Assembly: GCA_000827325.1 (NCBI GenBank) | Contig: KN832872.1 | Location: forward strand, 2,895,698-2,959,697 | Direction of reading: 5' to 3' | DNA from: Oidiodendron maius Zn | Taxonomy: Eukaryota; Ascomycota; Leotiomycetes; Myxotrichaceae | Length of the DNA stretch: 64,000 bases | In this document: positions 12,049-51,971 of the stretch, in pieces | How positions within the stretch are numbered: position 1 is the first letter of the stretch | Layout: every line of letters starts with the position of its first letter | Position numbers and translations under genes: made by a program | Notes under the pieces: generated by a model | What the model was told of the DNA's origin: nothing | The model's database searches: none | What the model saw: the letters and a program-made list of their open reading frames with translations, nothing else

Positions 12049-15000
12049 TTATGTAGGCGGGGTATTAAAGATAATCTCCCTGGTAGACACCAGCGTACCT
12101 CTCTTGGATTTACTCTGATTTGACAGCGAATTCCATAAATCTGGCGTGAGTCTCGGGCTCCGCAGCGGCGTTATTACGCTGAGTTGTGATGATGATTTCT
12201 CTTTGGAGGACCAAACACTGGAATTGTTCGACGATGGCAGCGCGCTAAGACGGGAGTGGTAGTTTCTGCTGTGGTACTTGCCGATCCAGAGCATCTGCTC
12301 GTGTTCACGGAGATAACGCTCAGAGGAGAAATTCTTGAGCACATTCTCACGGCCCATCATGCCTAGCCGTCGACGCTGCTCGGTTTTCTCATACATGCGT
12401 TGGGTAATCTGTTTGACTTGTTCTGGCGTTGGGTTTGGATATGCAAGAACTGGCGGCGAGGTTCCTGGTGCATCATCGGCGTGGGTGCTCCATTTTCCAA
12501 GAAGGGCCATGATACTGAGTTGCGCACGGGCAAGAGATTCGGCGTCATTCGGAGGCACGACCTCGCTGAAGCGATCTCCAGTTATGCGATCTGTCACGAC
12601 ACAGAAAGATGCCCCGACATCAGTGCAGACGACCGGAACACCTGTCAAGGCGGCTTCACCCATGGCTAGAGGAAGACCTTCAGAGATGGAAGAGTTCAGG
12701 AAGAGCCAAGCGTCTTGAAGGACAAGGGATGGGTTGCCTAGACCCTTGAGAACGCAATGGTCTCGCAGGCCCTTCGAAGCGATGAGCTCCTGACATTCCG
12801 TAGAGATAGTCGCGGCTCTTTCCATGTCTCCGTATATATGAAGGCGGTAGTCGGTAAACCCCCACTTGTTAACGATCAGATCAGTGGCCATGATGGCGTT
12901 CTTCAGGTCCTTCACGTATTGAACATGAGACAACATGACTACTGTGGGCTTGTCCGTCTTAATCACCTTGATCGGTTCAAACTTCTCCATGTTGCAGATC
13001 CCGTTGACGACCGGGTCAATCTTTCTAGCGAAGGTGCGTCGATGTTCTAAGGAGCCTTCGGCAGTTCCCAGCTCGACCTCCCAACCGGGGTTAAAATATT
13101 CGGCGCAGGGGAGTACAACATCGGCATGGTGCTCGAGGAGAACACAGCTCAGATGTCCAAGGGATATCAGAGAACTGTTTATAAAGGGACTGTCATATGA
13201 AACCGCCGAAGACAGGAATGTCGTCAGCTCTCTAAAGCTGATACAGTGGTCCCAAACATGCAGTGTGCATTGGCGCTTGACCTTGCAGAGGATACCATAC
13301 GTGGCACCCGTGAAGTGATGAGACGCCTGGAAGACATCGGGGATCCGTTCCGGCACGGGAATAGAGAAAATAAAGAGATATCGATGCCACATATCGAGAG
13401 CCTGGTCGAGTTGCAGCATAGTGGGTTTCTCGAAATCCAGCCATTGCGATACAGAGTGTGTTCCTTCCATATCTTCAGTCAACCAAAGCTTCCTCCATGT
13501 CTGCTTAACAATGTCACTACACCAGACGTCATTCCAACTTCTCGACGACTCAAAGTAAGTGTTAAGGTCCACTAAGGCCATTGTAGCTTCTTCGATGTGC
13601 CTGCGAGTCAGCTTAAGTGTGCGCGAGCATCGAACCAAGCTAGCAAGAATTGGCAGAAAATTCTTCTTGATGTCCTCAGTTCTTGTGTCATAGGACCATT
13701 CTACAACAGCCGAATCGAGGGTATTTTCAAGGATTCCGTGAGTTGGGTTGAGAAAATCCAAACCCCACAGTGGCAAGACCGTAAGCGATTGCACATTTCT
13801 TTCGATCTGGAACCTTGGCACGCCGTAATCATTCGCCGATTCGGCGACGATGTGCCACTTGATCGTCTTGAGGTCATTTACCATGTCCCTACGGCAAGCC
13901 GACACTCCACCGGGCTCATTCGGCCATGTTGATGTGTCCATGGCAAGAATGTGGAGTTCATCATCGCTGTCTCGCAGTTGGGATGACAGAGTTCTTGTGT
14001 TAATCCTAGAATCGCCGCCCTGTCCGAAACTGTACAAATCGCTAATCTTGAAGGCAATATGCGTCCAGGAGCTGATCAGCGGGTCGACATCAACTCTTGC
14101 CATGATAGTATCAGCTTGTGCGTCGAGATACGTCTTCGCAGTATCGAGCATGCCCAGATCACGGTTCCTCCAGTAGGTATCGAGAATTCCGTCTGATCTC
14201 AACAGACCCTCGTCAATCCATCGGGCAGTGATAGCGTCAAGTTCTTTGCCATCCTTCCAAGTTTTCCATAGTTGAGTCCTGGCATGCGACGTTGGTATTG
14301 GATATCGTTTGACATTGAGACCAAGAAGGCGTGAGAAGAAGTTCGACTTGACCGAGGAAAATGACAAAAGTGGATTATCGCTCAGAAACGCACACTTTTC
14401 TGGTTTTTGCAGAATGTGAAACCAATCTTCCCGTATCATTGGGGGAGTTGGCACGGCCTTTCCATTTAGGGTGGTAGCGATATCGGGATGGAATTTGTGC
14501 TCATAGATCCACGTTGCGTGATAGATGTCATTGCCCTGTATAAATGTAGCTTCCGTGATATTGCTGAAGGGTATCCATTCGTCTAGTCTCTCTGGGTGGT
14601 TTCGAGGCGGTACGCTCCATAACACCCTGATCGTAATGTGTGGAAAAACATACTCCCCTCTGAGAAGTTCGTCTTCAAACTTGGCACTTTTGCGATACCA
14701 GTAGGTAAATTGGACTGGATTGACACCCCTGAAGGCGGATCCAGTTGTGATATACCCTCTGTGATCGTACTGCACGATCTGCCCGTTTAATTCTCCCTCC
14801 ACACATTCACGTTGCAGTGGCAGCTTTGAACGCAATTTCTTGTCGTTCTGGGGATACTCGTAGGTAAAGGAATTGCCGAGTTTCCCACCATCATACTCTT
14901 CCCTCTTGCGGAGAATCAGTTTGTCGCTATAGGTGTTAATGGCCATGAGCTTCTTTGAGTCACCTGGTTCTTTTTCATGGCGTCCAGTATATTGCACCAA

Positions 15001-18000
15001 TCGAAAGCTACCGTCGGTCTGAGTAGATAGAAAACATGTTGAAGGGCCGCCGAGGCTTTCGATTGTAATCGTATGCTTCTCTACGACGGTCCTCATGCCC
15101 TTCATATTACTGTGGAGCCTCGAGAGGGTTTCACGATTGTGGAACAAGACAAGTGGCAGTATCACTTCCTGAAGTGCTTTGCACAAAGACCAGATTCCAT
15201 TCAGGAAAAGGGTGACTGGCCAGTGGATAAATAGTGGCTTCGCTCGCAACATGTAGTGGAGTTCCCTCTGATACTCTGGATCGGCAACAAGCGAAAGGAC
15301 GAAGAATTTGATGCACGTTTGCACGATCTGATGGAACCGCGAGAGACTTCGCTTGAGATATTTGAATATCGATCCTGGCTCACTGGGCCTCGAGGCATCA
15401 AAACCGAGCAATGTTTCGCTGCTCGAATCGGGAAATTCTGGCTGGCCTTCGCTGTAATGACCGATCATCTCCACTGTCTTCGCAAAGGCATTCACAGATA
15501 ACGTCATAACGGCGCCAAGGTCGCATCTCGCAACATGTTCTTCTACATTCAGTGAACCACTTGCCCAGATCCTTGAGCGGATCCAGTCTTCCTGATAGGA
15601 GGACAAAGGGACACGTTGTCCACAACATCTACCAAGCAGGAAAGATCTAATTGGCCTAGGGAGAATGTCCCATTCCCTATCACAGTCTACTCCGAGGAGG
15701 AGATAGCGAAGTAAAGCTTTGTCGCCATTGTTGATGACTCGAGCACGTTCAGCAGGCGAACATTCAAGCTGGAGCTTAACGCCTTCTGGAATAGATGGTT
15801 CTCTATCGCTTAGACCCTTTACAACGAGTAATTCAGCTAACATCGAATAATCATGCGGGAAACCAAATTGGTATTCGGAAGTGGCCCGGACGAGAGCTTC
15901 TGCAATGATATTGCAGTTCCTGTGGGTATTCAATATCCATTGATCTCGTACCAAGTCAAGACCAATGATGATGAATATGTGTATCTGATCGCCATTCTTC
16001 CGACTAATAGCTCTGATAGTCTCTTCTTGCTGGAGCAGGTGTCGCCCCGAGACAAGCTCAACTACAATTTGACCAAGTCTCCAAAGTTCTGCTGTCCGGT
16101 GTATCAATTGATCTGCAGACGGGAAAGCATCTTGTAGTAGGTCTGATTTTCTTGTCTTGCTGTGGGATAACAATATTTCTAAGATTTCAGCGCCTGGATG
16201 TTGGGACGAATCGACTGTGTAGCGTAGCTCAGAGGGAAGAGAACAAATAGATTCACATGTCTTGGACAAAGTAGCCTGGGAGAGCTCACGATAAGGTTCG
16301 AGAGCGCTAGTGGAGTAAGTAGATGGCGAGCCGTTGACTCCGATTTCTTGGTAATCATATTTAGATAGCGAACCGGAAAAGCTCGGCCATCCAATGTTGG
16401 CATACCACATTGAGTGCGCAGCGGCAGCCCAGGTTGCAACGGCTAAGGCGATGACTTCGCTGTATGCAAAAGACCGAAAATAAACACGCAGGACGATGCC
16501 TACTGGGAGACCTAGAATGGAGGCCAAAGCGAGACATTTAGCCGCGTTGTTCCCGCAATATATTTTGTTGTACTGGTACCAAAGAAGGCCAGTATATGCA
16601 CCAACATAACTCAGGTACATTGTCGTAGCACTCCTTGATGAGTCGAATGTCCACATGAGCGCCGCTGTAAAGGCAGCTCCCCAGATGTGCAAGAAGAAAA
16701 ACTTTGAGATGTTCTTCCAATAAAGAGCTCGTCTTGCCCTAGCATCATTGATAGTCGCTTGTCGCAGGAATTCCAAGGAAGTAATCCGCTGGGTAGTATT
16801 TTCGTTCGCCAGCGCCCACAAAGGTTGTGATACGGCGTCCAGAGACACGGCCCCAATGAGATAGTAGCATAGTCCGAAACCTACTGCCAGACGAAATTCT
16901 GCGCTGCTGGCAGCAGAGAGACCCACGAGGCCACCGCTAGTAAAAAGGGAAACCCACTTGTCCATAAGAGCGACTACAAAATATAGGAGACCAGACCAGA
17001 TATCTCGACCAGTATGCCGATAGTGAAGGAAAGAGCTGTGGAGCTTGAGGCCCTTTTGCATATTCGTCATGTTCTCGAGGCCGGCCTTCAGCGTCAGATT
17101 CCACGTTGAGCTATAAGGCAATGGCATCTTCGCCCTTTTGTGCCTACAATACCACGACATGAGGAACAAAGTGGATGCATACCCCTTAGCCAGCCTGTCA
17201 ACGAGCGGATCCGATGTGGAAGTCTCCCAGAAATGGCGCTTGTGCTCTTTCAAAACGGCAGCGTGGAGCTCTTTCCGAGGTTGCGGCATCGCTTCACCGT
17301 CTTCAAGCATTCTTTTGGAACCAGTGGTTGGCTTGCGAGCTGGTATTTTGGTGTACCAATCAGCGACTTCGGTGTCCGTTACCACTGGTATATTGAGATA
17401 CCAGGTCCCCCATTGAGATATGATACTTCGTGCTCCGAGTAGAAGGGCAATCAAGAAACAGGTAAAAACGCAGAAGTAGACCGCGATATCGTGTTGAACC
17501 CATAAGCTGACAATGGGAGATATAAATAAAATTGGAATGCAGCATACGATGGTGGTTCTTCCCTGAAAATTTGATGTCTAGTTAGTGATCATATATCCGA
17601 CAGAGGAAGAAATCGGAAAGGAAACTAATATTAGACACAACTGGAGTATACTTACAGACTGGAAGCTGGACCCTGGGAGTTGATAGACAGAGAGTACAGA
17701 TAGAGTCAAAAGGTATGTGGTGAGCATAGCAAAATAGTAGAGAAATATCAATCCAGCAGTGATGCCCTTCACAATACTGACGGCCACCATACCCCCTAAG
17801 CCGCCAACCAAGGCGATTGCAATTCCAGCAATGAAGCGTGTAAGGACAAACATGTTCATTGCTGGGAAGCCACAGGCATAGAGATAATAAGTTCCTCCTG
17901 AGGTGATCCAAGAGCCGACTGCACCACATGCTAATAGTGCCAACATAAGTGCTGTCGTTGCGAGTGTTTTCTGTGTCGAGCTCATGAAAATTGTCAGATA

Positions 18001-20851
18001 GAGACCACGACCCACCGTTGTGAGCAACATAATGTCGATAAGTGCGGGCAGTGCAAAAATGGCCAAGAAAGTAAACTTATAATATATAGGTACTGCTTCC
18101 TTGCCATCTTGCGGATCTGCATCAATTTGCATAGCTGCGTACGCTGTAGGGAGCTCGGTGAATCCCGCTTCGCGAGGTGGTGGCTGGTGATTTTTGTAGT
18201 GGGACATACACTGATCTGAGATGATCCGTCCCAAGGCCTTGGGTGTCATGTCAAAAAAGGAGTCGCAGCGGGAGCCAACAGCAAAATTCTCAGCAAAGCA
18301 AGCCGCCTGATCAGTTGTAGTGTTTGGGTATGGATTGCGGTCCAGGACTTCCAGATAGATCTCATCCAGAGCAAGTTTCCGGAACGCGCAGAAGACCGCC
18401 AGAGAAAAGATGTCAGCGCCGGCATCTATCCGGTTCTTCTGCGTTATTGTTTGGATCACCACACCTAATTGCGCTAGAACTTCACTCTGGCCGCTTATAA
18501 GCACTTCGTACAAGCGGGCGTCGACTTCTACGAAAAGCGAGAGGCTAGCTGAAAGATCAGGGTGCCAACAGCCCTTTTCGCCAAGCCAGGCAAGCCGGGA
18601 TGCTATCACACTCTCCGGTGTAACTTTACCACTGAGATACGCCGTCGAGTTCATGGCCCGGATTTGGGAGAGTGTGGGAACCTCCATGAGCTGGTACTTA
18701 CAACACGCGCGTAGTCTCTCCAACAATGGCGATTCATGTGCGCGATCCAGGAGACCCAGGCGCCGCATGAATAAAACCATTTCCATTGGCGAGAGCTGTT
18801 CCACGTCGTGGACAATTCGAGACGGAAGACTCCACTTCTCTGACAGTACACCATGGTGCTCGGCCATGGCCAGCTCTGCCATGAAGCATTCTGTCCGTGA
18901 CAACCTCCGGCTGGACAAGAACGTGTGGAGGATTGTACCGGCGCGATCTGGCGTCTTACCCGAGAGGAAGATGGTGAAGACGCCTGAATTGGGGTCCGCG
19001 CCATAGAGACCCCAGAATTGAACAGTGGTACTGGTTTGGAATCCAGAGTGTAGTCCCACGTAGACCTGGATGCGGGGATTGCCATCATCGGGGTTGGGAG
19101 TAAAAAGTTCCAGTAGCTCTCTGACCGCAGCGGCCCAGACGGGCGTGCTATCGCCGATGCATTTTGCATCATACAGTAACCGTATCTGTTTTGCGATGAT
19201 CTGGAGTTCTTCTTCTTCAATGCACTGTAACAAATCCAGATCTTTCAGGTTGCGCTGTGCCTGTAGGATCTCAGCGAATGTGTCTTCCGTGGCTTCGAGA
19301 CCGAGGTGGAAGCATCCCAGGCCCGTCCAGTCTTCTCCAAGTGCTGACCTCGACAACGGGTCTCCATCCGTCGCAACCAGCGGCCATGCAGAGTCGGTCT
19401 GGGCATGGTTGAAGATCTGCAAATCCACATCCCCTTGGTCGTTTTTGCTTATCTTTTCAACGGGCGGCTGTGACAATCGCAATCTGGTCGGCAGGTCTGG
19501 AATAAAGGACTGCAGCGACTCATATAGAACATCATTGTCACATGAGCTTTGGGCGATCTGTAAATATATAAGTATAAGATAAAGAGAATTACGACTTGTC
19601 TGAAGCTATTCATACCTGGTCGTTGGAGCGCCACGAATCATGTGCCCGCATATTGTCTTCGTTCTTCAGCCACATTAGTGCGCCCAAAGGTTTTTCCGAC
19701 CATGTGGCTGCAGATACCGCTGCATTGGTCAGAGCGGCCGCAGATCCAATCCAGCAAAGCGCACTGTTGTACCGACACCAACTGAAACTACGCTGGACCA
19801 CGGCATATTGAAGCTTCACGTTATCATCCACCGTCTCCCATATCATCAACGGAGGGCCATGAGGAACCCGTTGCGCCGCGATAGCTCTCATGGCCGTGCG
19901 CATCGATGTCATTTGGAAGTAGTCCTGGATGTCTCCGTCTGTGCCGATGGTGCCATTGCGACAGACGATGCCGCGGACCAGCTCCATGTTGATATCACGA
20001 CATTCGCGCTCTGTCAGGTAGGCGGGCGGCGCCATCTCAAGCCATAGGTCAAGGTTGAGGCTGCAGATGTATCTGGCGATCTCGTTCAAGACAGGCGGCT
20101 GGAAGTGCTTCTCGAAGCCAGCCAGTAGGACACCGGTGAAGGGCGACGCCGAGGACGACGACGACGCCATATCTTGCGGAGTCGTGAAGCGTGTAGTCAG
20201 TGTCTGCGCGATGATGCCGATGGCTGAAATTGCGTCGTCATGGCTGGAGCTTCCGTTGGACTGGGCTAGTGTACTTATCTCTAACCGTCCGATGATATGT
20301 GTAGACGAACTGCCGCAAGTCGAAAGGGCGTCCATCACCCCGTCTTCCAGGGGGTCGAGAACGAGGACATCCCATCTCGACAACAGAGATGTCTGGTGAG
20401 TAGTAGGGGGGTTCGAGAAGCTACCGACATAGACACCAAACGACTTGGGCTCATCCTTGGCTGTTGCTGCCCTTTCTTCCGCGATGGGTTTGCTACTGCT
20501 GCGAAGGCGAGCGATGTATCGCGCAACGGACCTGGGCACAACAACTTGTTGATGTCGAGTCTAGGGGAAATGGATTCTCAGCATCACATCCGGGGTCATG
20601 CTTCTTTCTGCGCTGGTGGACAAGACAACTTACCGTCCAGACTCGGACCAGTCGACACCATATTAGATACAACAAATAGAGCACACCCAGGACTATGGTG
20701 GCCAGCAGGAAAGCTCCCAATACCTTGATACCTGTGTTAGCTCGGTATCTAAGAGGGCTTGTAGAGGATAACAGGACCATACCTTTTCCCATACTGAATC
20801 CAGCATCAAGTGCCAGCCTACAGCCGACAGCCCCAGGTATTGCGCCGTCAT
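12049..20851 (-). CDS. Giant membrane glycosyltransferase, GT4 (PelF/Gtb3-like)
   Basis: Five exons: 20851-20783, 20723-20634, 20560-19616, 19557-17656 and 17562-12049. They are joined by introns of 59, 73, 58 and 93 bp in consistent phase and give about 2839 aa. The start is ATG 20851 in a CACCATG context, followed by a membrane segment (GAFLLATIVLGVLYLLYLIW). Residues about 80-370 look like a TIM-barrel-type extracellular domain (FGVYVGSFSNPP, LLAGFEKHFQPP, DLWLEMAPP, MIWETVDDN). Clusters of membrane helices lie near residues 850-1060 and 1180-1390. The C-terminal 500 residues are a GT4 domain: PNEPGGVSACRRDMVNDL, then KPTVVMLSHVQYVKDLK, HIYGDMERA, and the E-x7-E motif SEGLPLAMGEAALTGVPVV. 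This resembles PelF and the Gtb3 synthase of the Aspergillus galactosaminogalactan locus. Expected role: polymerising a UDP-sugar into a secreted polysaccharide at the plasma membrane. The first acceptor (AAG) is the least certain junction. Confidence 0.8.
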
Positions 20852-21486
20852 GGTGACAGCGCGACAAAGCAAGTACTGAACGAGTGACAATGCAGAAACA
20901 GAATAAAGAACAAAAGAGAAGGATAGGGGGTGTCAATGGTGCATTGACAAGTGTCCAAGAGAGTGTGCCTCTCAAAAGAAGGATATAAAATGGCAGCACT
21001 ACAACAGAATTCAACCTCGCCCCTGTTTCGGCTGAGCAAAGTAGACCAGTAGACCGGAGGCTAACCCTGATGGAAAGAAGTCTTACTTTGTACGGATATA
21101 TCCCATTCGAAGATTTACGAAAGTAACCCTAAACACCAACATTAGTAGTTCTCATCGTGGGCCGTTCTCATTGTATCCCGTTGCATGGACCCCCAAGGCC
21201 CATCTCGGCCTATGATCTGAGGTTGCTGACGCCACGACAGCCCTGATAATAAAGCTGCGGCTGGTAGGCTATTATTAGCCTCATAGCCGTGCTCCGTACC
21301 TCGGAAAGTACACGTTGCGACGGGTCCGAAGGCCCCTACGGCCCCTGACAAGGGCGCCTAGCAGGCATTGTCCATGCAGTTGGTCGGTGAGAGCGGTAGG
21401 GCGAGCTAATGGAGATCAATGCAGTAGCGTACCTGAGATAAGCTGCGGCTGGATTCTCTTGCTCATTTGCTGCTACGGTACCGTAC
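20852..21486. promoter_or_regulatory. Divergent region between GT4 and first GH135 gene
   Basis: The GT4 gene and the first GH135 gene are transcribed away from each other, and their start codons are 1103 bp apart. The part nearest the GT4 gene has in-frame hydrophobic triplets before the ATG but no ATG of its own, so I treat it as leader. The rest of the shared region is occupied by two small inverted-repeat elements (21489-21773). Confidence 0.5.
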
Positions 21487-21488
21487 TA

Positions 21489-21590
21489 CGGTAAACTCTC
21501 TGGTTGATTTATACCGTACTCACCAAAATACCGGATTTTTCCCGTCCCGCCCCATACAACATCTTTTGATCCAGTATCGAGAGTTTACTG
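21489..21590. mobile_element. Small MITE with TA target site, copy A
   Basis: A 102-bp element. The left end is CGGTAAACTCTC and the right end is GAGAGTTTACTG, imperfect inverses (one mismatch in 12). TA dinucleotides flank both sides (21487-21488 and 21591-21592), as expected for a non-autonomous Tc1/mariner-type element. The terminal repeat is short, so the call is moderate. Confidence 0.5.
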
Positions 21591-21592
21591 TA

Positions 21593-21773
21593 CTATCCCC
21601 CCTGAATCCTTTGAACCGCTTAACCTAGAAGAGCATTAAAGGAATGATTTTTAGCTTACACATCCAACCAGAACTTCAGAAATCCTTCGAAATATACTCT
21701 TTTAAGTTAAAAGTTCGAAGGGATCAAAAAGGATCAAATAAGTTGGGGGGTGAACTGTTCAGGGGGGGGATAG
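21593..21773. mobile_element. Small MITE with TA target site, copy B
   Basis: A 181-bp element abutting copy A and sharing its TA at 21591-21592; the other TA is at 21774-21775. The left end is CTATCCCCCCTGAA and the right end is TTCAGGGGGGGATAG. Inside, TCCTTCGAA and TTCGAAGGGA form a second inverted pair (about 21680-21722). It ends 181 bp before the ATG of the first GH135 gene, so it sits in that promoter. Confidence 0.55.
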
Positions 21774-21954
21774 TAGCCATTGCTGTTACCCGCTCCTGCT
21801 GCCCCTTCAGGGGAGTGGAGACTTCACGTATTTTGTGCTTGGGTTTGCTTCGCGTTCACATCTTCTACTTCTTTCTACGTAATCTTGTAATTTTATCTTT
21901 ATTTTGATTTTCTCCCTGCTCCAGTCGTGAGAGCAGTTGTGAAAGTCGCATTTC

Positions 21955-23125
21955 ATGGCTCCAACAAAGTCATTACCGCGGCGCAAGTGGTGCATTTCTA
22001 TTACTGTTGCTGCTATCATTGTCATTATCATCGTCATTGTGGTCCCGCTCGCTGTTATTTTGCCCAGAAAGAAGCACAACATTCAGAAGGCCAACGTTAT
22101 TGTGCCTCTGTACATCTATCCAAGCAGCACGAGTTTGTGGGATCCATTGTATAATGCGTAAGTCTAAGTCCAGGTCTCCCTCGTACCATCATCCTTCTTG
22201 TCAGCAATAGTAGCTAAATTTTCAATGCCCACAGGCTCGAAATCCATCCAACTTTGAACTTCACTGTGATCATCAACCCTAACAGTGGCCCTGGAACAAC
22301 CCAGTTCCCCGACGCGGACTACACAGCAGCCGTGGAAAAGCTGAGCACGTATGATAATGCACTGATGGTGGGATACGTCCGGACCGGATATGCTACGCGC
22401 AACATCAGTACCGTTATCGCCGAGGTCGATACATACGCCAGTTGGTCATCCAATTCCAGTGCGCTGACAATGCACGGTATCTTTTTCGACGAGGCGCCAT
22501 ATGACTATTCGGAGGATGCAGTGGATTTCATGCACACCGTTAACCAGGTCGTGAAGAACTCCACCGGCCTGCATGGACCCCGACTGGTAAGTGCCGCTCT
22601 CTTTCGTGATCTGCTGCAGCCGAGTATCTGAGCCGCTCTGCCGGGAATTGGCAATATAACCCCTATCTTACAAGGAGCAATGCTGACAGGGGCGAACATT
22701 TTCCCGACTCCCTCGCAGTGGCTGGCGTTGCTTTTTTTTTTATCTTGGCAGGGCGCGTAGATAAGGAAAGCAAAAAAGGTACTGTTACCCGAGCTAACAA
22801 AATACTTCCATAGGTGCTTCACAATCCCGGGCTGATCCCAGACTCACGCTTTGACGACAATACTACGGATGTAACTGTGGTCTTCGAGCACGATTACCCA
22901 ACATTCCTGACAAAGGAGGCCAGCCTAGACGCCCTGCCCAACAATCGATCCGAGTACTGCTACTTGATCAATTCAGTCCCGACGATGGCGCTGGCCAATC
23001 TGACGACGCTGGTGGACACGTTGAGCTCGGAAGCGCAGTACTTGTTTCTAACGGAGGAGACGGTCGACTTCTACCAGAGCTTTGGAAGCTTGTGGACAAA
23101 CTTTACAGCAGCGATGACCACGTAG
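21955..23125 (+). CDS. GH135 (Sph3/spherulin-4-like) glycoside hydrolase, membrane-anchored, copy 1
   Basis: Three exons, 21955-22157, 22235-22586 and 22814-23125, with introns of 77 and 227 bp, give 288 aa. A basic N-terminus (RRK) and one membrane helix at residues about 13-37 predict a type II anchor with the catalytic domain outside, as in A. fumigatus Sph3. Family motifs are NVIVPLYIYP, FTVIINPNSGPG, MHGIFFDEAPYDY and DVTVVFEHDYPTFL. The acid pair D153/E154 and E210 correspond to the conserved Sph3 catalytic acids. Sph3 is an endo-acting hydrolase of N-acetylgalactosamine-containing galactosaminogalactan needed for its production. It neighbours the GT4 gene divergently and a second GH135 gene convergently. 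No broken features were seen. Confidence 0.85.
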
Positions 23126-23549
23126 GTTGGGGGGGGGGTTTCTATCTTGCATATCTTGTAGCCAATAATCGCTTGTTTAATAATCGCTCAACTGTCTTTC
23201 CATCCACTTTTCCCCACTACCACGGGATGATTTTTCTGGGCACGGTGAATGATAATAGTCCAGCCGAGACTGGTACATGCGATTGCGAAGAGAAAAGTAC
23301 TGTGGCGCAGGTACACATGATGGGCTGAGTCATTCGTCCTAAAGAGGAAAGGTTGTTGCGATTTAGCTACTGTAAGTAGTATTGCGACTGTCAGGGCGAA
23401 GCCTAACTTACCTCTGGGTAAGGTAAGGTGCGTAGGGCAGATTTACACAGGGGGCGAGGTGGGCCAGGCTGTGTGCCAACGTAGATAAGAAGTCAGCCGC
23501 ACCTCGTATAAATCAGCCACCATATTGATTTTCCTCCCGCAAGCACTTA
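23126..23549. other. Intergenic, no gene seen
   Basis: The 3' region of GH135 copy 1, leading into a MITE. No coding sequence was recognised. Confidence 0.5.
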
Positions 23550-23773
23550 CGAAGATCGGCGACAAAAGCCCTGGCACACGCTAGTAGGGATGTGTCCTCT
23601 GGGCGATTGCCCAGCAACTAGGGCCTACTGAAAAATTAGTGAGTTACAGGCTCACATTCCCTAATTTTACGGCGCCTATAGCCCGTACAGTACTGTAATG
23701 ATCACTGTTACCCACTAATTTTTCAGCCCAGTGGACGCATCCCTACTAGCGTGTACCAGGACTGCAATCTTCG
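23550..23773. mobile_element. Tc1/mariner-type MITE, 224 bp
   Basis: Flanked by TA on both sides (23548-23549 and 23774-23775). The terminal inverted repeats begin CGAAGAT and include the near-identical core ACACGCTAGTAGGGATG and a GAAAAATTAGTG block, in all about 70 bp with small gaps. There is no coding capacity. It lies between the two convergent GH135 genes. Confidence 0.75.
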
Positions 23774-23987
23774 TACTGTGGCTGCTTACTGACTTGTGAT
23801 TCTCACTGGACACGGGAAGTCGAACCAATGATGCAAGGGCGCTACTGCACATGTTGTAACAAGCCATCCAACAGACATTGCCCTATCCGGAGGATCAAAA
23901 ATTATCTCTCTACGATCTTATACTCTTTTGCGAAAGAAGTCCACACCTGTATTCCAATCTTTTAACGACCTCACACGAACATAGAAA

Positions 23988-25223
23988 CTAACTCCCCTCA
24001 ACCGCAGCTACAAAACCGTTCCAACTCTCACCAAAGCTCTCATAGAAATCGTCCACCAGATCCGTAGCAAACACGTAATCCCCCCTGCCTTTCAGCTCCT
24101 GCACCGCCTCGGCGATTTCCCCTAGTGGGACACCGGATATCATGTATCCTGAGCGTGAGGGTGGGTAGTAGTATTCTTTGAGGCGGTTCTGGACTTCGGG
24201 GCTAAGATATCGAGCGTGGGGTTCTTCGCAGGTCAAGATTATATCTGGGCCGTAGGTCGGGCCTGATATGTCTTTGTCCGGCTCTATGTTTGTGGTTATG
24301 GGTGTGGGTTTGATGATAGACGCGAGGGGAGGAGGCGGAGGAGCGAGGCTGTAGTCGGGAGGGGTGCCAGGGTTGTGAATGATCTGTGTGGGTGTAGAGA
24401 TGTAAGTGATAGATATATAGAAGTAGCAACAGAATCTGGACGCGTGGTCTGGAGGAAAATAGTGTCCCTAATCTCGAGAGAAGATATCCCACCTTCGAAC
24501 GTGCTGGTTTTGCCCGAAAGTCTGGAAAAATAAAAAAAATTCGCCACTTACTAGTCGATCCCCTACAAACCCTTCTGAACCTCTGATCTTTCTTGCCAAC
24601 CTCTCAAGATACTTCTCCCTCTCTGCACTCCAATGATTTGGACTCTCATCTAAGAGAATGCCCTCAAGTGCCATGCCCCCTCTTCCTCCCTTTCCCTCAT
24701 CTTGCTTCCCTCTTCCTTCTCTCTTCCCTCGCTCCTCCCACTCCCTTCCCCATCCAGCATACGTGTCGATATCGGCCTCGACTGCCGCGATATCACGACG
24801 GCAGTAGTCAATGAGGACGTATCCAACAGTAGTGACGTTGGGGTAGGCGTGGAGGCGAGGGACCTCACGAGCGTAATCGTCGGATGGTAGAGGGGGTGCG
24901 GAAGGCCCCGAATTGGGGTTGATGACAATCAGGAAGGGGGTTTCAGGGTGGGCTGTGATGCTACGGGGGATGTTGTGTTAGTTGGGGGCTGTAGGGAAAA
25001 TAAGGCATTGCTACTAAGGAGGTATAGGAAGGCGAGAGATATGGCTTAATGAGCAGGAATTAAAAATTGGCGCCGTAGGCAAATATAGAAAGCAAACATA
25101 CACATCATGCAGTGGCTGCCACGTCTTGTCGCTTACTGGATAGTAATAAAGCGGGACGAGGACGGTCGTCTTATGATGTTCTGTGCGTGGCTCAGGGGCA
25201 GCAGGAGGCGCTTCGGGTTCCAT
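23988..25223 (-). CDS. GH135 (Sph3/spherulin-4-like) glycoside hydrolase, copy 2
   Basis: Three exons, 25223-25102, 24960-24552 and 24383-23988, with introns of 141 and 168 bp, give 308 aa. Motifs align with copy 1: TTVLVPLYYYP, FLIVINPNSGPS, VTTVGYVLIDY, LEGILLDESPNHW and DIILTCEEPHARYL. The acid pair is D145/E146. Both introns fall at the same aligned positions and phases as in copy 1, so the two are paralogues. A highly charged Gly/Arg/Glu/Lys stretch (about 113-136) sits before the acid pair and is absent from copy 1. From ATG 25223 no signal or anchor is visible. An in-frame ATG at 25430 would add 69 residues with a hydrophobic run (FLTLLTLASILSIYL) behind a basic segment, giving a type II anchor; I cannot decide between them. 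Confidence 0.8.
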
Positions 25224-25524
25224 GATAGATAGTAAGTTACAATTCTCGAGATAGATTGAGAGGATTGAGGCGAGGGTAAGCAGGGTGAGGAAGGGTGAGC
25301 ACGAGGTGAGGCGAGGGAGAGAAAAGCGGCGAGTGGTCACGTGCGCTGTCCCTTGGCGAGCACGCAAATGAGGTGAATATTCTGGACAAACAACAGAGAA
25401 ACTATAGAGAATTAACAGCTGTTTGTCCATATCAATTCAGTCAACTGCGTATGAACGGTCGGTTGCTATGTAGTAATCCAATGCTAAGAACATTAAATAC
25501 CTTACCCCTCTGGCACATTTGCTT
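25224..25524. other. Short intergenic or alternative 5' coding region
   Basis: This holds the possible upstream ATG (25430) of GH135 copy 2 and the 3' end of the GT25 gene. A CACGTG E-box lies near 25339. Confidence 0.4.
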
Positions 25525-26804
25525 TTACCATTGCTTGATGAATTCCTCCGAGCCCGTCAGGAGAGGCTCCATATTCAACCTTGCGCTCAGGACAATCGTA
25601 TCCGTCTCAGCCTTCGGCCGGAACTTGCCCGTATCTCCGCCCAGGATATCACTATCCCTAGATAATGAGCCAGCGGAACGATGGTGGTGTATTAGTTCAG
25701 GCTGCACTGAGTAGCACTGCACGTCGAGGAAGCCATCACGGCAGAGCGTCGCTAAAGCATTGTCGAATGCAAGTGCTCCCATACCTTTAACTGCAAGGGC
25801 CATAAGCAGTTTCTGCGCGCCTCGGTACGAGACGCCATACCCAAAGCTGCATATAGGAGCACCGGCACGCTGGATAAGGCGCGTGCCTTCGGGGTATTCA
25901 GCCAGGCCCTTGAGCCAGGTCTGGTGTTCTTTCGGAGCAACGGTCTCGTCATGTTCGATTATGTAGAGCTGGTCCTCGTGTTTAGGCATCTCGTCACCGC
26001 AGTGGCCAGGCCATATCACGTCCCAGTCGTCACCGTAAGGGGAGTGCTGCTTCTCGGTGGGAGAGACCCCACTAAGTTGACGGATGCCTTTGGCAAGGTC
26101 TCGCATTTGAAATGGGAGGCGAATATCCCAGTCGGCATCATCCTCCAGGATGAATACAGATGAAATCTTATTCTCAACAATACTGCAGGAAGAAATATTA
26201 GCATATAGGAACGATGCTATGTCCTCGTTGCTCGGTCATGGTGCGTATATGCTCACCTTCGGATTATGTCCATGTGACCCCTCCAGGAACCTATCCTTCC
26301 GGGAAGGAGTGTATCCATTCCCTACTCAATACGTTAGTGCTCAAGAAAAAAAATAAGTAATTGCATGTATGCATACCGGCGGCAAGAACTTCTCTACTAT
26401 GTCCTCTCCCCGTATAGACTCCCAAAACTCAACATCGAAACCAGTCAGCGATGCCGCCAGGGTGATTGCATCTCTCCTATCAAACCGCTGTTTCAAGCCT
26501 AAGACGTAAAGCTTCTCGTACTGAAAGATTGTTAGAAGGAGTGAAAAGAAGGATGGATATGGCGCACTCCAAGAGTGGCATTACTTGCACGGCCAATTTC
26601 GGACGTAGTATCGAGTTTATGCCTGTTCGATGTGATAGATCTGTAGTTCGGAGAGAGCTTAGCCTTCGTAGAGCTGAACGAGATTGTGGTTATTTCTTTC
26701 AATATGAACGGCCATCGAAAGGCCAGGATGAGAAGAAGAGATAAGGCTAAAGAGATAACAAGCAGGTGAGGAGAGCTCTTTAAAGAGCGCGAGAGTCCCG
26801 CCAT
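25525..26804 (-). CDS. GT25-family glycosyltransferase, type II membrane protein
   Basis: Four exons, 26804-26568, 26520-26377, 26321-26257 and 26182-25525, with introns of 47, 55 and 74 bp, give 367 aa. ATG 26804 (ACAATGG) precedes a single membrane helix (residues about 13-32, LLVISLALSLLLILAFRWPF), typical of Golgi glycosyltransferases. The domain opens with YEKLYVLGLKQRFDRRDAIT, then DTLLPGRIGSWRGHMDIIR, VFILEDDADW (acidic metal-binding-type motif) and a C-terminal part with AGAPICSFGYGVSYRGAQKL. Together these are hallmarks of fungal GT25 (LPS-type glycosyltransferase) proteins. The sugar and acceptor are unknown. Its place beside two GH135 genes and the GT4 gene suggests it decorates or primes the same polysaccharide; this is inference. 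The first intron's GTGCGC donor is unusual. Confidence 0.8.
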
Positions 26805-28858: not shown

Positions 28859-29765
28859 CTATCTACTTCTTGCATACAGAGACTAAAACCGGCGCATTGT
28901 CGGCGAAGCATGCAGATATGCCTGAAGTATTGAGACAGGCTGCTCTGCTTGCGCGAACCCAATTAGTTTTCTAGAAACCACTTCATTATGATCATAATAT
29001 CTTCTCTTGTAGCAGCTTCTAGGAATTCAAGGCGGTCTTCACCAAGAAATTCGCATCATCTAAAGCTCTAGTGAGTGGATTCAGGACAATATGAAATGAT
29101 ATCCTGGGTACCTACTGTGTCTATATTCTCTGAGCTTTTCGATAGTATTCTAAAGAGCAGAGTAATATTGCTTCTTCGCTCCATGGTCAATAAAACGTCA
29201 ACAATACTGATGTCAGTCAACCCGAGTAAGTTTGCGGTTAAAAGCTCTTGCTGCACCCGCAGCTCGAGTAAAGCTTACAGGAAAGGTCTCCACGAAGGAT
29301 ATTTCATTTTGGAAGTCCAAAACCTTAGGATAGGGATAAACCTCTAAGCTTTTATTTAAAATATATGTCAGTTGCGTATGAAAATCGCCGTTCGTATGAT
29401 CGGGTCATTGCCCCTGGGTTTGGTAGGGATGACGAAAGTCGGATAAAATAACGACGAAGTCAGCGGCTATTACACTTGAATGTTCCTTTTATATGTATTC
29501 TCCTACCTCACAAATGCATAGAAACGGACCCTGCGCCGACTCAAATTAGACACACGACACGTTACAGTCAACTGCCGCCTGCTGTGCCACTTCGGTTAGC
29601 CTTTAGATCTAACACCAGGGGTGTCCATTCTTTAATAAATCCCCACCATCGGCTCATTCCCGTCAGCCTGCTCTAAAATATTCATTCTGATATCAATGTC
29701 GCTTCTTTTATCGGGCTGGCAGAGCACTTCAAGTCAACTACCGACGTCTTCTCGTTATCACGATC
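28859..29765. other. Intergenic, upstream of HET gene
   Basis: No supported gene. A short minus-strand stretch near 28965-29035 reads DRLEFLEAATREDIMIIMKW, which looks protein-like, but I do not recognise it. Confidence 0.4.
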
Positions 29766-32700
29766 ATGTCTAGCTACGACTCTGCACGCGTGGTCCCTCA
29801 ATCGCCAGCGCCACGGCGGAATTCCTCTTCTAGCACTAGCAGCAACGAAAATTTCATCGTCATGATTGATCGAGGCAATCAAGAAGAAGACGATGCAACC
29901 TCATCTACGCCACAACTGCACCATGATCGCATCGCTGATGGATTATCAACATTCAACAGCCGCGCGTCCGGGAATGACAATCAGCCATCTCCGCTATCAT
30001 TAAAATCTGTAGGCAGCTTTTTTCAAAAAGCAGGCCAAAACATCAAAAGCGCACATTCTAATGCGCAAAATCTCCTCGAAAAATCGGGTGCGACAAAGGT
30101 GGCAATTCAGACGAGCAAATTTATCACTCAGACTGGTGAGAACGTGGTTGAAACGTTCAAGGAAACTGGTACCGAACTTCTCCAAGGCACTACCACAGCC
30201 GTAAATCGAGTTGGAGAGCAATTAGGTGGAGTCGGTCAAAAGCTTGCTTATTTGACGCCACCCTTGCTTCCCGACCCCATCAAACAAGATATACAAGACT
30301 TGACCGGCAAGACCATGGGATTTAGAGACCTTTGTACCCGATGTTCTGAACTGCCGGTCTCGGCATGCTGGGAAGATGAAGCAAGCATTCCATCCGAGAT
30401 TTTGAAGTGGAGTACACCTCTGGCAAGAGTCATATACCATGCTGAATGGTGTCGTTTGTGTAAGCTCCTACTCATGATGCTCTGTCGTCCCGAGCACGAC
30501 CCGTTGAAACACCCTGAAGTGGAACCACACTTGCAACCAGAACTCCAGAACATGACTATGAAGGAATGGGTAGACCAAGGCTGGGCTTTCACAGACAAGA
30601 ACTGGCCTTTTGGACGTAGCGAGACGCGTCAAGAAGGAGCGACGCTCTTTCTTGGCCCGCTTGGCCAAGGAGCAAAACAAATATTGTTAACTCCAGAAAA
30701 ACGGCATGTAGCCGTCTCTCTAGCAACCTCCCTTGTGTCGGCAGCTGCTAATAAACCACGCCCCAAGCCTCCACCATTCAAAGGCACGTACAATGATGGT
30801 CTCAGACGAGGTCTGAAAAAAGGCCGAGAAGAAGCAACTAAGTATCCACTAAGTTGTGATATCTACATCTCAATTTTCACCAGCAAGAGCTCTGAATTCC
30901 CGGGGCTCCTCATGGCGAGTTGTGTTGGGTATGGGAACCGCCCAGGAGGGGAACCCAAGACATTGGCCAGATTCTGCATGCGTGTAGCTCATCCGAACAT
31001 TCGCTCTAATTTGGGATTGGAGGCACCGTTATCATATGGTCGCCTCCTTGACCCAGACTGGATTGATTTATCCGTCGCCAGATGGTGGATATACGAGTGC
31101 GAGACGAAGCACGGGACTCTTTGCAGTCAGCATGGGTGGGACATCGCTTTGCAAACGCTGGAGTCAATTCGCCTTATCGACGTTGAAAAGATGTGCCTCG
31201 TCGAGCATTTGGACATGACTTCAGCTTGTCGTTATGTGGCTCTATCATACAGATGGAGTAAGACAAAGGTGGTTCTGAAGTATGAGAACAGGATCGAGTT
31301 CATGGAAGAAGGTAGCCTTCAAAAGGTTTTAGATCAAATCCCCAGAACCATCGTAGATGCAATGGAGGTTACGATGGAACTCGGCGAGCGGTACCTCTGG
31401 GTAGATGCACTTGTAGGCATATGCTTTATCACGTCCCGTACACACTATGCTAATCTCAATAGTGCATCATCCAAGAGGCCGGGGACGACGAAGCGAAAGC
31501 TCACATATCTATGATGGATCGAGTCTATAGCGGTGCTTTAGTCACGATCGTAGCCGCCCCGGATAACACGAAAGAAGGCGATACGGACCCTGGCCTTAAA
31601 GGAGTTTCGCGACATAAATTTATCACCAATAGTGACAACGAGGGGACCAAACGGGAAATCACACAACCGTCAGCCGAAGTCAGAGATGGTGCTCGTATTA
31701 TTGCTCCATTTGCTTGTCGTCAACAACTGGCTACGACGGCCTGGAATTCCCGATCTTGGACTTTGCAGGAGAAGCTATTATCTCGCCGTTTGCTTGTTTT
31801 CTCCGGAGATGAAGTAGTCTGGCATTGCAGACAGATGATCGCTCGCGAGGACATGAGGAATGAAGACTCCAGGGGAACAGTCAAACCTCTAGAATGGCTG
31901 AACTTGAAGCCCAAGTTCTTCGACCAAGGCACCCATAGTCACTGGATTGATGGCAGTGTGAAGAAAGACCGGCATGGAGGAACACATATTGTTCGATCCG
32001 GGACCTTCGCTGAGTATACCAAAGTGATTGAAGAGTACACCCATCGCCAATTATCGTTCAAGTACGATATTATCCGTGCCTTGGAAGGCATGTTGCAGAT
32101 TTTCGGTCGAAGCTTTCGAAGTGACTTCATATATGGATTGCCAAAGATATTACTTGATATTGCCATTCTATGGAAGCCGTCACGCCGGTTACGCAGGCGG
32201 ATATCAGAGAATTGGTCGGTCTTTCCTAGTTGGTCGTGGGCAGGCTGGGAAGGTCTAGTATGCTACGATGACCCGATAGACATCGAACGAGACATGGATG
32301 GAGAGGTCATTGGTTATCGCAGGAGTCGTGACGGCGAGGAAGGGATCCGTCCCTTGTTGAAATGGTATTATTGGGACGAGAAAAGGGCCAAAGTTGAAGC
32401 GTTGAACGGGCATGGGCTAGGTATTCCGTTGGGAGGTTCAGAGTTGCCCTCTGAATGGGATATCAGCCGTCCCAATGGTTTGAGACCTGGCATTCCTGAC
32501 ACGACCGGGCTCAATCTGCAAAGCTATCATCTCATCTTCCACACAAGGTCGGTAGCTTCTTTCCAGCTAGCTGACATAGCCACCCAGAACAGAAGCGGTC
32601 AACTGCTTCTTGGGGGTGGTTCGAGCAAACGGCAAGCCGACCAAGTACCGCATCGCTTTGCCATTGTTGACTCTTGGTTGAGGAAGATTGGAAGTTTCGT

Positions 32701-32944
32701 TCTTGACGGCGAAGAACCTCAGCGGCTTGAAGCAGAACGGCATGAGTTCATACTTCTTGCAGAGACACAACTACTTGGTCTCGAGGTTAACGAGAAGTTG
32801 AATGAGGAGTTTCGGTACTACTTCGTCATGCTGGTTGAAAAGGATAGTGCCACTGGGACATATGCTCGGTGCGGGCTTGGAAGAGTGTCAAAGGAAGCGT
32901 GGAGATTGGCGGAGCCAGTGTCAAAAGTCATAGTCCTTGGGTAG
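29766..32944 (+). CDS. HET-domain protein, 1042 aa
   Basis: Two exons, 29766-31412 and 31463-32944, with a 50-bp intron that splits the HET domain in phase, give 1042 aa. The N-terminal 60 residues are Ser/polar-rich. Residues about 75-170 form a run of amphipathic helices (FFQKAGQNIKSAHSNAQNLL, FKETGTELLQGTTTAVNRVG). Next comes a cysteine-bearing segment (LCTRCSELPVSACW, HAEWCRLCKLL) common before HET domains. HET blocks are CRYVALSYRWSK, RYLWVDALCIIQEAGDDEAK and SRSWTLQEKLLSRRLLVFSG, the last followed by VVWHC. HET proteins act in the cytosol in heterokaryon incompatibility and other fungal non-self responses. The trigger and partner are unknown. The gene appears whole. Confidence 0.85.
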
Positions 32945-49824: not shown

Positions 49825-51971
49825 ATGGTGGAGCCTTCCGACCCAAAAAATTTATGTGAAGTATGCAATCATATAAACCTGGAGGATCTCAAGGGAACAG
49901 ACGGCTACGTACATCAACCATCATTCAAGGCCCTTGTGGACAGCGCAAGTGGTTGCATGCTATGCAAATTGATTGGAGAGGCTTGTGATCGTTATTTATG
50001 TAGGGAAAGGGTGAACGTTGATGCAGCAACTGGCCATTTAGGCCCCGTTCGATTGTTTGCGACAGGCCAAAAGGAAAAGTTTTCGGGAATGGAGCTGCGA
50101 ACCCTCGCAGTACTTCGAGAGAGGGAGCTGTCCCAAAATGTACTTGTGACTGTGGGTAAACTTCAACAGAAGCTGTTTGTGGACCCATCTTGGTCAATCC
50201 TGCTTGAGATGTATGCATTGAAAGGTAAGTCGCCATAGCGACGATTGCTAGCATCTATTCATTTTATTTAGGTTCTTCTGCCGAGCAGGCTGGAATACCT
50301 AGACTGAGGGAGATTGAAAGCCATGCTGCATGCGAAACCAACTTTTCAAGGCTTAGAAAATGGCTCGAACTATGTAAACGCAACCACGAGATATGTTCTC
50401 TAGAACGTATCAGACAACTTATTGGTACATCATCCATGCCGAAGCGACTCATTGATCTCGGAGCTTTGAATGCCTCACAAACCAAACCCAAGATCATTCA
50501 TACCCGAGGACGCCAAGAGCAGTACGTTGCTCTAAGCTACTGCTGGGGGTTAACGCAGCATTTCTGCACTACGAACGAGAACTTCAGTGAAATGCAGAAG
50601 TCAATTCCTATCGAAATACTTCCACAGACCATCCGAGACGCTTTCTTAGTTGCTCAAAAGTTGGATATACGGTACATTTGGATTGATGCGTTGTGCATTA
50701 TCCAGGACAATGAAGATGACTGGCATAGCGAAGCCAGGCGAATGGGTGCAATCTACGCAAATTCATATTTTACTATCGCAGCAACGGCCGCCAAAGACTC
50801 TGGGGAGGGGTTTCTATGGCCTCGAGCACTCAACAGAGTCTCGATGCCATTTCGGCGTTACGCAACCTCCGAAAGTGAAGGCACTGTGTGCTTCAGACAG
50901 CGCTCCGATTTTCTTCGGGATCATCAAGAGTATGTTCTTAATAGCCCATTACAGAAAAGAGCCTGGGTACTGCAAGAAACGCTTCTATCGCGTCGCACAG
51001 TGCACTTTTCGAGCAAGCAGATATACTGGGAATGTCGCAGTACATTTGGTGTTGAGGACAACATGACAAATGATGTCGATTGCAGAGAACATGCACACGA
51101 GTTTCTGAACATGTTGTCGGCGCTCCAAGGCGGAATATGTTCAGAGAATCATGCCATGATATTTTTCCGGATATGGGCCAAAATTCTATCCCGGTACTCA
51201 ACACTTTCCATAAGCCGACCTAGTGACAAGCTTCCTGCACTATCAGGTCTCGCTTTACTGGTAGAACGTATCATTGGATGCCGGTATTTGTATTGTATTT
51301 GGAATTTTAATCTCCCATACAATCTTTTCTGGCAACCTGTAAATCGCCCGATACCTCGAGTTAATGAATGGAGAGCGCCGTCGTGGTCATGGGCCGCTTG
51401 GAATGGTGAGATCATGTTCGAGAACTATTTCCCAGTGGAATATTCGAGCATTAGCTTCAAAGATGCATTTGAGGGCAGCCAACTACGAGGAGCGTTGAAA
51501 CTGGCGGGTCAGATCCGCCCATGTTACGTCTCCCTTGATCTACAGCCGCAGCCAAAACCATGTCGAAGTGATCGCAAGCTCAAGGAGATACCCATCGCAC
51601 CACCTGAATATGCATTTGCAGAAGACAAATCAAAGCTTCTTGAGTATCAAGCATCTATCGAAACTAGCCCCTACGATCTCTACGGCGAAGCACCAGGTAT
51701 CTCATTACTTCGGATAACAGAAGGCAGATTGATGAGCGCGCAGGGTCCTGGCGAGCGCAATGTGTGCAGGTTTGACGGAGAAAGAGGGACTGAAATAGAC
51801 TTCTTCTTCCTTAGGCTCTCCTGCACTTCCGGGATGGAATTTCATCATTGTCGTGGATTGCTTCTACGCTGTGCGACCGGAGCCATTGATGTATACGAAC
51901 GTGTGGGTGTTGGATGGTCAACGGATACATGGTGGCATACCGCTCCCGAATCTGTGGTTACGCTTGTCTGA
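49825..51971 (+). CDS. HET-domain protein, 699 aa
   Basis: Two exons, 49825-50224 and 50272-51971, with a 47-bp intron, give 699 aa. The N-terminus has the pre-HET cysteine segment LCEVCNHINLEDL and SGCMLCKLIGEACD. HET blocks are YVALSYCWG (about residue 215), RYIWIDALCIIQDNEDDWHS and RRMGAIYANSYFTIAATAA, and QKRAWVLQETLLSRRTVHFS followed by IYWEC. The later APSWSWAAWNG motif is usual for the family. Role: cytosolic non-self recognition/cell-death signalling, inferred from family. The ATG lies 8 bp after the TA target site of the pogo element, so the original promoter or leader was displaced or is supplied by the element. Confidence 0.87.

What the first reader, a model, noticed from the sequence alone, without database searches (positions are those of the whole stretch)
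12049..26804. A galactosaminogalactan-like exopolysaccharide locus with an unusual gene set
A giant PelF/Gtb3-like GT4 membrane synthase, two GH135 (Sph3-type) hydrolases and a GT25 transferase lie side by side. In the described Aspergillus GAG locus Gtb3 and Sph3 sit with Uge3, Agd3 and Ega3. Here no epimerase, deacetylase or GH114 gene is visible, while a second GH135 and a GT25 are present. This could be a paralogous pathway making a different (for example non-deacetylated or branched) polymer.
Basis: partly seen in the sequence, partly recalled or inferred. Interest (0 to 1): 0.82.

Follow-up and report, generated by a model that had tools for sequence, protein, structure and literature searches.

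The report
Reduced fungal GAG-type polysaccharide locus
A mould carries a giant membrane enzyme and trimming enzymes like those that build the sticky polysaccharide galactosaminogalactan, but two partners that the known pathway needs were not found in its genome, so it may make a different polymer or the set may be a leftover.

Summary
The four genes are there and intact: a 2,839-residue membrane synthase with a PelF-like GT4 domain, a membrane-anchored GH135 that is this genome's closest match to Sph3 (42.6% identity), a second GH135 without a membrane anchor, and a GT25. No epimerase, deacetylase or GH114, nor a remnant, was found in the 64-kb window. 'Paralogous' fails: no second such synthase was found in the 45.9-Mb assembly. 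The GT25 has a 68% paralogue elsewhere, so its place in the locus is weak. Best reading: a reduced GAG-type locus making an undeacetylated, probably GalNAc-poor polymer; a remnant or missed genes remain possible. By the published definition it is not a GAG cluster. Conservation in other fungi could not be tested, because no fungal collection is searchable here.

The parts
12049..20792 (-). Giant membrane synthase, 2,839 aa; exons 20792-20634, 20560-19616, 19557-17656, 17562-12049; hydrophobic helices at aa 28-46, about 857-1050 and 1225-1360; PelF-like GT4 domain about aa 2205-2692
12496..13956 (-). PelF-like GT4 domain; SISEG...E (E-x7-E) and KDL motifs shared with 5 of 5 bacterial PelF aligned
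21955..23125 (+). GH135-1, Sph3-like, N-terminal membrane helix, 288 aa; exons 21955-22157, 22235-22586, 22814-23125; catalytic Asp (FFD) and Glu (VVFE) kept
23988..25223 (-). GH135-2, 308 aa, no hydrophobic helix in this model (start uncertain), low-complexity insertions, Asp (LLD) and Glu (LTCE) kept; exons 25223-25102, 24960-24552, 24383-23988
25525..26804 (-). GT25 glycosyltransferase, 367 aa, N-terminal membrane helix; membership in the locus uncertain; exons 26804-26568, 26520-26377, 26321-26257, 26182-25525
20793..21954 (.). 1.16-kb intergenic stretch between the divergently transcribed synthase and GH135-1
   Evidence: coordinates

Best explanation
This is the fungus's only GAG-type locus, in reduced form. 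The cytosolic PelF-like GT4 domain of the giant synthase polymerises a UDP-sugar and the same protein's membrane helices pass the chain out; the membrane-anchored Sph3-like GH135-1 trims the emerging chain. Without Agd3 the chain stays undeacetylated (neutral), and without Uge3 the donor is probably UDP-galactose from the UgeA-type epimerase, so the polymer is probably poor in or free of GalNAc. Shown: gene structures, the PelF-like domain and its motifs, a Sph3-like hydrolase with its catalytic residues, no second synthase found, no Uge3-type and no Agd3-type gene found. Inferred: export by the same protein, trimming, polymer composition, and that the locus is active.
For: PelF-like catalytic domain. 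GH135-1 is the best of 6 GH135 genes of this genome for Sph3: E 1e-70 at 42.6%; next by E-value C4 (2e-45, 33.9%) and GH135-2 (4e-44, 30.9%); of the two GH135 in the window it alone has an N-terminal membrane helix. One match for the synthase's last exon. Epimerase: of 22 GalE-model matches, 3 are exons of one gene on C8, 75% identical to A. nidulans UgeA (4lis) and with Leu where UgeA and Gal10 have Leu; C19 and C20 read STDEVYG and are dehydratase-like; a search with the C8 protein gives itself and five places at 28-31% identity. Agd3: no match with two Pfam models or with 283 residues of Agd3 at E up to 10, while the same two models recognise a bacterial Agd3 homologue (9.6e-17, 5.8e-16). 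In A. fumigatus Uge5 makes UDP-Gal, Uge3 also UDP-GalNAc (PMC4619649, passages); Uge3 and UgeA share about 39% (PMC5598270 Table 1), so one search should have shown a Uge3.
Against: GH135-1 keeps the catalytic residues of an enzyme that cuts GalNAc stretches, and an Ega3-like GH114 (58.6%) persists in the genome; both fit a GalNAc/GalN polymer better than a galactan. In A. fumigatus loss of uge3 abolishes GAG (PMC4619649), which speaks for an inactive remnant. No expression data. Assembly completeness was not measured. The exon-by-exon search missed the window's own GT25 with its Pfam model, and the three empty Agd3 searches had no positive genome control (the tool says so). 14 of the 22 GalE-model matches (E 4.6e-11 or weaker) were not read. 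No fungal Gtb3 was available, so orthology is unproven.
Confidence: 0.5

Rival explanations
1. Ordinary GAG biology: Uge3 and Agd3 exist in this fungus but are outside the assembly, or were missed because exons are short or diverged; the cluster has simply been scattered, as the Ega3-like gene has.
For: The Ega3-like GH114 is unlinked on contig C6. The exon-wise search missed GT25 with its family model; no positive genome control for Agd3; completeness not measured; 14 weak GalE-model matches unread. The GH135-1 active site is conserved.
Against: The epimerase searches found the UgeA gene exon by exon and dehydratases at 30% identity, but no second GalE. Agd3 was sought three ways without a match. 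The 14 contigs whose lengths I saw are 0.6-3.2 Mb, so gaps at both genes are less likely.
Confidence: 0.25
2. One reading: a separate, paralogous four-gene pathway (synthase, two GH135, GT25) conserved as a unit in other fungi and branching apart from GAG loci, making a branched or non-deacetylated polymer.
For: The two GH135 genes are 0.86 kb apart and one is beside the synthase. GT25 includes animal procollagen galactosyltransferase (matched only weakly, E 0.17), and the 68% GT25 paralogue lies 3.4 kb from the UgeA-type epimerase on C8.
Against: No second synthase found in the genome to be paralogous to. GH135-1 is Sph3-like as far as one reference can tell. GT25 is one of 5 places in the genome.
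Confidence: 0.12
3. A non-functional remnant of a GAG cluster: precursor supply and deacetylation lost, remaining genes drifting.
For: uge3 deletion abolishes GAG in A. fumigatus (PMC4619649, passages). GH135-2 has low-complexity insertions and no membrane anchor in the model. No Uge3 or Agd3 found.
Against: All four reading frames are intact, including 2,839 codons, with GT..AG introns and conserved catalytic motifs.
Confidence: 0.13

Closest known systems
GAG biosynthetic cluster of Aspergillus fumigatus (uge3, sph3, ega3, agd3, gtb3) and its Metarhizium and Neurospora counterparts
   Same: Predicted membrane glycosyltransferase near a membrane-anchored GH135 (GH135-1 is 42.6% identical to A. 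clavatus Sph3)
   Different: No epimerase, deacetylase or GH114 in the locus; no Uge3 or Agd3 found genome-wide; a second GH135 and a GT25 beside it. The N. crassa cluster has one GH135 (PMC11356417, passages)
Bacterial GAG/Pel-like operons (Deinococcus, Streptomyces, Kocuria plasmids; the kind is described in PMC7229062, section 13)
   Same: PelF-type GT4 with a membrane protein (read as such by hydropathy in two) and GH135 and/or GH114 annotation
   Different: Separate genes for GT and membrane protein; no similarity found between that membrane protein and the fungal membrane part; in two of them the sugar-nucleotide gene resembles LegB 4,6-dehydratase
Sph3 (GH135, PDB 5c5g/5d6t)
   Same: Family, catalytic Asp and Glu, and for GH135-1 the N-terminal anchor
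   Different: GH135-2 is only 30.9% identical, has no anchor in the model and carries insertions

Membership tests
GAG gene cluster (criterion of Lee et al. 2016, PMC4817252, passages) | Predicted glycosyltransferase at the locus | tested here: met
   PelF-like GT4 in a 2,839-aa membrane protein
GAG gene cluster (criterion of Lee et al. 2016, PMC4817252, passages) | Hydrolase or spherulin-like protein at the locus | tested here: met
   Two PF12138 genes
GAG gene cluster (criterion of Lee et al. 2016, PMC4817252, passages) | Epimerase at the locus | tested here: not met
   None in the window; the clear GalE of the genome is a UgeA/Uge5-type gene on C8
GAG gene cluster (criterion of Lee et al. 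2016, PMC4817252, passages) | Deacetylase (Agd3) at the locus | tested here: not met
   None in the window; none found genome-wide, without a positive genome control
Gtb3 (GAG synthase) orthologue | Groups with Gtb3 of other fungi in a tree | not testable with these tools
   No fungal Gtb3 sequence could be reached; only the single match in its own genome is shown
PelF equivalog (NF038011) | Score of 100 bits or more | tested here: not met
   66.3 bits; so PelF-like, not PelF
GH135 (Sph3), GH135-1 | Spherulin4 profile with catalytic Asp and Glu | tested here: met
   E 1e-79; FFD and VVFE aligned to AcSph3. D166 variant inactive: PMC8546845 passages; Glu222: PMC12054363 passages, which prints Asp196 for the other residue
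GH135 (Sph3), GH135-2 | Spherulin4 profile with catalytic Asp and Glu | tested here: met
   E 1.7e-65; LLD and LTCE aligned; activity untested
GT25 | PF01755 above curated cut-off | tested here: met
   24.2 bits against 24, marginal

The most novel reading that the evidence does not exclude
An active GAG-type export system that runs without the GalNAc-making epimerase and without the deacetylase: the giant PelF-like synthase polymerises UDP-galactose (or UDP-GlcNAc) into a neutral alpha-linked exopolysaccharide, two GH135 enzymes with shifted specificity trim it, and a GT25 adds branches. Surveys that demand epimerase plus deacetylase would not have counted such loci.
Probability: 0.17. Interest if true: 0.62.

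Novelty: new variant of a known kind. Interest (0 to 1): 0.42.

Why it matters
Which sugars Gtb3-type synthases can polymerise was left open in a 2019 review, which says it is not known whether Gtb3 makes all the sugar combinations of GAG (PMC8647848, passages). A fungus with a Gtb3-like synthase and a Sph3-like hydrolase but no Uge3 or Agd3 would be a natural test: the synthase accepts another donor, or UDP-GalNAc comes from an unrecognised enzyme, or the locus is a remnant. The survey criterion of 2016 (synthase, epimerase, deacetylase and a hydrolase or spherulin-like gene; PMC4817252, passages) would have passed over it.

Tried and rejected
1. Paralogous second GAG pathway: rejected for this genome, as no second synthase was found (with the last exon only). 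2. Missing genes hidden or decayed in the window: tblastn of part of Agd3, UgeA, C8 GalE, Ega3, C6 GH114 and bacterial counterparts gave nothing below E 0.75; no repeats of 40 bp or more in window 9000-30000. 3. Weak epimerase hits as Uge3: C19 and C20 read as dehydratases; C13, C1 and C12 I judged by eye to be other SDR enzymes, from recalled knowledge. The remaining 14 of 22 matches (E 4.6e-11 or weaker, among them a 47-residue one on C38 with a stop inside) were not read. 4. Synthase membrane part as a fused copy of the bacterial operon's membrane protein: no similarity above reversed or shuffled controls. 5. Fold of exon 2 (aa 54-368): AlphaFold2 on one sequence gave mean pLDDT 33.5, useless; my impression of a TIM barrel there is unsupported. 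The second prediction job and all fold searches were not used. 6. Relatives: one viral-contig scan found none; plasmids gave only the PelF part of the last exon and nothing for exons 3 and 2. The genome-contig scan was not used (prokaryotes only). 7. My first genome search used PF03659, which is GH71 and irrelevant here. 8. PF01755 in the genome found nothing, not even the window's own GT25: a failed control that limits all exon-wise negatives. 9. Literature on reduced GAG loci: one search found 0 papers; one search listed 20 of 41, none on it by title and start of abstract. One search (GT25 in fungal polysaccharide loci) listed 3, none relevant; one search listed 15 of 691, none on the fungal synthase.

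Full report
What is there. The window lies in a 45.9-Mb, 58-contig assembly, at C3:2895698-2959697. HET-domain genes in the window fit a filamentous ascomycete (recalled knowledge); the species was not determined. I rebuilt four genes at GT..AG introns. The synthase runs 20792-12049 (-), 4 exons, 2,839 residues, joining the 1,842- and 675-codon frames and two smaller exons. GH135-1 (21955-23125, +) starts 1.16 kb from the synthase on the opposite strand. GH135-2 (25223-23988, -) and GT25 (26804-25525, -) follow. None has an internal stop.

What the parts are. The C-terminal part of the synthase (about aa 2205-2692) is PelF-like over nearly the whole length of PelF: tblastn against plasmid records 4e-15 for a Deinococcus PelF, hhalign 99.4% over 425 columns with reversed and shuffled versions of the segment at 0.1 and 0.2%, and the KDL and E-x7-E motifs shared with 5 of 5 bacterial PelF aligned. 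It scores 66.3 bits against the PelF equivalog cut-off of 100, so it is like PelF but not filed as PelF. The rest, about aa 54-860 and 1370-2200, has no clear relative in what I searched: exon 2 gave only a sub-threshold DMRL_synthase match (15.8 bits, cut-off 26.7), exon 3 nothing (plasmids), and aa 1370-2200 no match. The exon-2 structure prediction failed (mean pLDDT 33.5). Both GH135 proteins match Spherulin4 strongly. I count 6 GH135 genes from 8 exon matches. Against the solved A. clavatus Sph3, GH135-1 is best: E 1e-70, 42.6% over 258 positions; then C4 (2e-45, 33.9%), GH135-2 (4e-44, 30.9%), C21 (7e-32, 32.5%), C2 (2e-28, 34.7% over 196) and C9 (0.004), the last four being unspliced frames. 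GH135-1 has an N-terminal membrane helix, as Sph3 has (PMC11356417, passages). The Asp and Glu that act in Sph3 are aligned in both window proteins (residue roles from PMC8546845 and PMC12054363 passages). GH135-2 lacks a hydrophobic helix in my model and carries low-complexity insertions; the frame is open further upstream, so its start is uncertain. The GT25 assignment is marginal (24.2 bits, cut-off 24).

Is it paralogous? Not in this genome. The last exon of the synthase finds itself only, and the PelF model finds the window (62.8 bits) and one GT4 on C8 (38.8 bits).

Where are the other GAG genes? In the window there is no trace. In the genome: (a) GH114: one gene, C6:33229-33909, 58.6% identical to A. 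fumigatus Ega3, with no GAG gene among the 5 of 7 neighbouring frames that I tested. (b) Epimerase: the GalE model gives 22 matches, all below its cut-off because exons are scored apart; ranks 1, 2 and 6 are exons of one gene on C8. That gene is 75% identical to A. nidulans UgeA, the Uge5-type enzyme, and has Leu where UgeA and yeast Gal10 have Leu in the printed alignments; that this position decides on UDP-GlcNAc is recalled knowledge. I read 5 further places (C19, C20, C13, C1, C12), none a GalE to my eye; 14 weaker matches were not read. Searching the genome with the C8 protein at E 0.1 returns itself and five places at 28-31% identity. Uge3 and UgeA share about 39% (PMC5598270 Table 1, passages), so a Uge3 should have shown. 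(c) Agd3: no match with Agd3_CE, CBM87_Agd3 or 283 residues of Agd3 itself up to E 10. The tool warns that an empty answer without a positive control shows nothing. The same two Pfam models recognise a bacterial Agd3 homologue at 9.6e-17 and 5.8e-16, which supports the models but is no control of the exon-wise genome search. That search did fail once: it missed the window's own GT25 with PF01755.

The GT25. Of 13 exon matches at 5 places, the window included, the closest outside the window, 68% over 220 residues, is on C8 at 762702-763990, 3.4 kb from the UgeA-type epimerase at 767401-768588, in a stretch with CLP1, Arb1 and helicase genes. So the window copy may be a duplicate of a core-genome GT25, and its place beside the synthase may be chance; the closeness of its paralogue to the UDP-galactose enzyme is suggestive but only one case.

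How it most likely works. In A. fumigatus Uge5 makes UDP-Gal, Uge3 makes UDP-Gal and UDP-GalNAc, and loss of uge3 abolishes GAG (PMC4619649, passages). Gtb3 is predicted to polymerise and export, Sph3 to cut the acetylated chain, Agd3 to deacetylate (PMC8647848, PMC7229062, PMC12054363 passages). With Uge3 and Agd3 not found, the consistent picture is a reduced GAG-type locus whose product, if any, is undeacetylated and probably GalNAc-poor. Against this stand the conserved GH135-1 active site and the Ega3-like GH114. In N. crassa acetylated GAG of the deacetylase mutant still acts as an adhesive for particles (PMC11356417, abstract and passages), so loss of Agd3 alone need not abolish function. 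The remnant reading and the missed-genes reading cannot be excluded.

Membership and novelty. Lee et al. 2016 selected clusters with glycosyltransferase, epimerase, deacetylase and hydrolase or spherulin-like gene, and found them in 28 of more than 250 genomes searched (PMC4817252, passages). This locus meets two of those four features and fails two. It works like part of the GAG machinery but is not a GAG cluster by that definition. MrGtb is only 28% identical to Gtb3 (PMC8224951, passages), so sequence distance alone would be a weak guide to orthology. I found no paper on a synthase-plus-Sph3 locus without epimerase and deacetylase (searches; listings only, of an open-licence library).

Limits. 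Assembly completeness was not measured. Gene models rest on splice consensus and homology, not RNA.

Noticed in passing
L043 (Deinococcus sp. QL22 plasmid), L044 (Streptomyces californicus plasmid), L058 (Kocuria rosea plasmid): Plasmid-borne GAG/Pel-like operons with pelF and GH135 and/or 'endo alpha-1,4 polygalactosaminidase' genes; L043 also has an Agd3 homologue. The kind is described in PMC7229062 (section 13), but in L043 and L044 the sugar-nucleotide gene scores best as LegB 4,6-dehydratase (467.6 and 453.6 bits, cut-off 475) and is followed by a nucleotidyltransferase and a second NAD-dependent enzyme, hinting at a modified amino sugar.
   Followed up: partly
L058:5517-14585: In Kocuria rosea the pelF-GH135-GH114 stretch on a mobilizable plasmid lies between two copies of a transposase with the same protein accession on opposite strands, as if it could move as a unit.
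   Followed up: no
L031 (C4:1840000-1849900): Another GH135 gene lies between an alpha-galactosidase A with a ricin-type lectin domain and a DUF3431 gene.
   Followed up: no
L032 and L033 (C21 and C2): Two GH135 genes 74% identical to each other on different contigs, one about 20 kb from a contig start.
   Followed up: no
C8:762702-768588 (L053, L027): GT25 paralogue, a zinc alcohol dehydrogenase and the UgeA-type epimerase lie together within 6 kb.
   Followed up: partly
window 29691-32941 and 50229-51968: HET-domain genes on the right flank; in the first, the HET profile is split over two long frames that meet near 31500, so an intron or a frame break lies there.
   Followed up: no
window 17656-19557 and 19616-20560 (-): About 800 residues of the synthase before its main membrane part match no Pfam family above cut-off and nothing in plasmid records.
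   Followed up: partly
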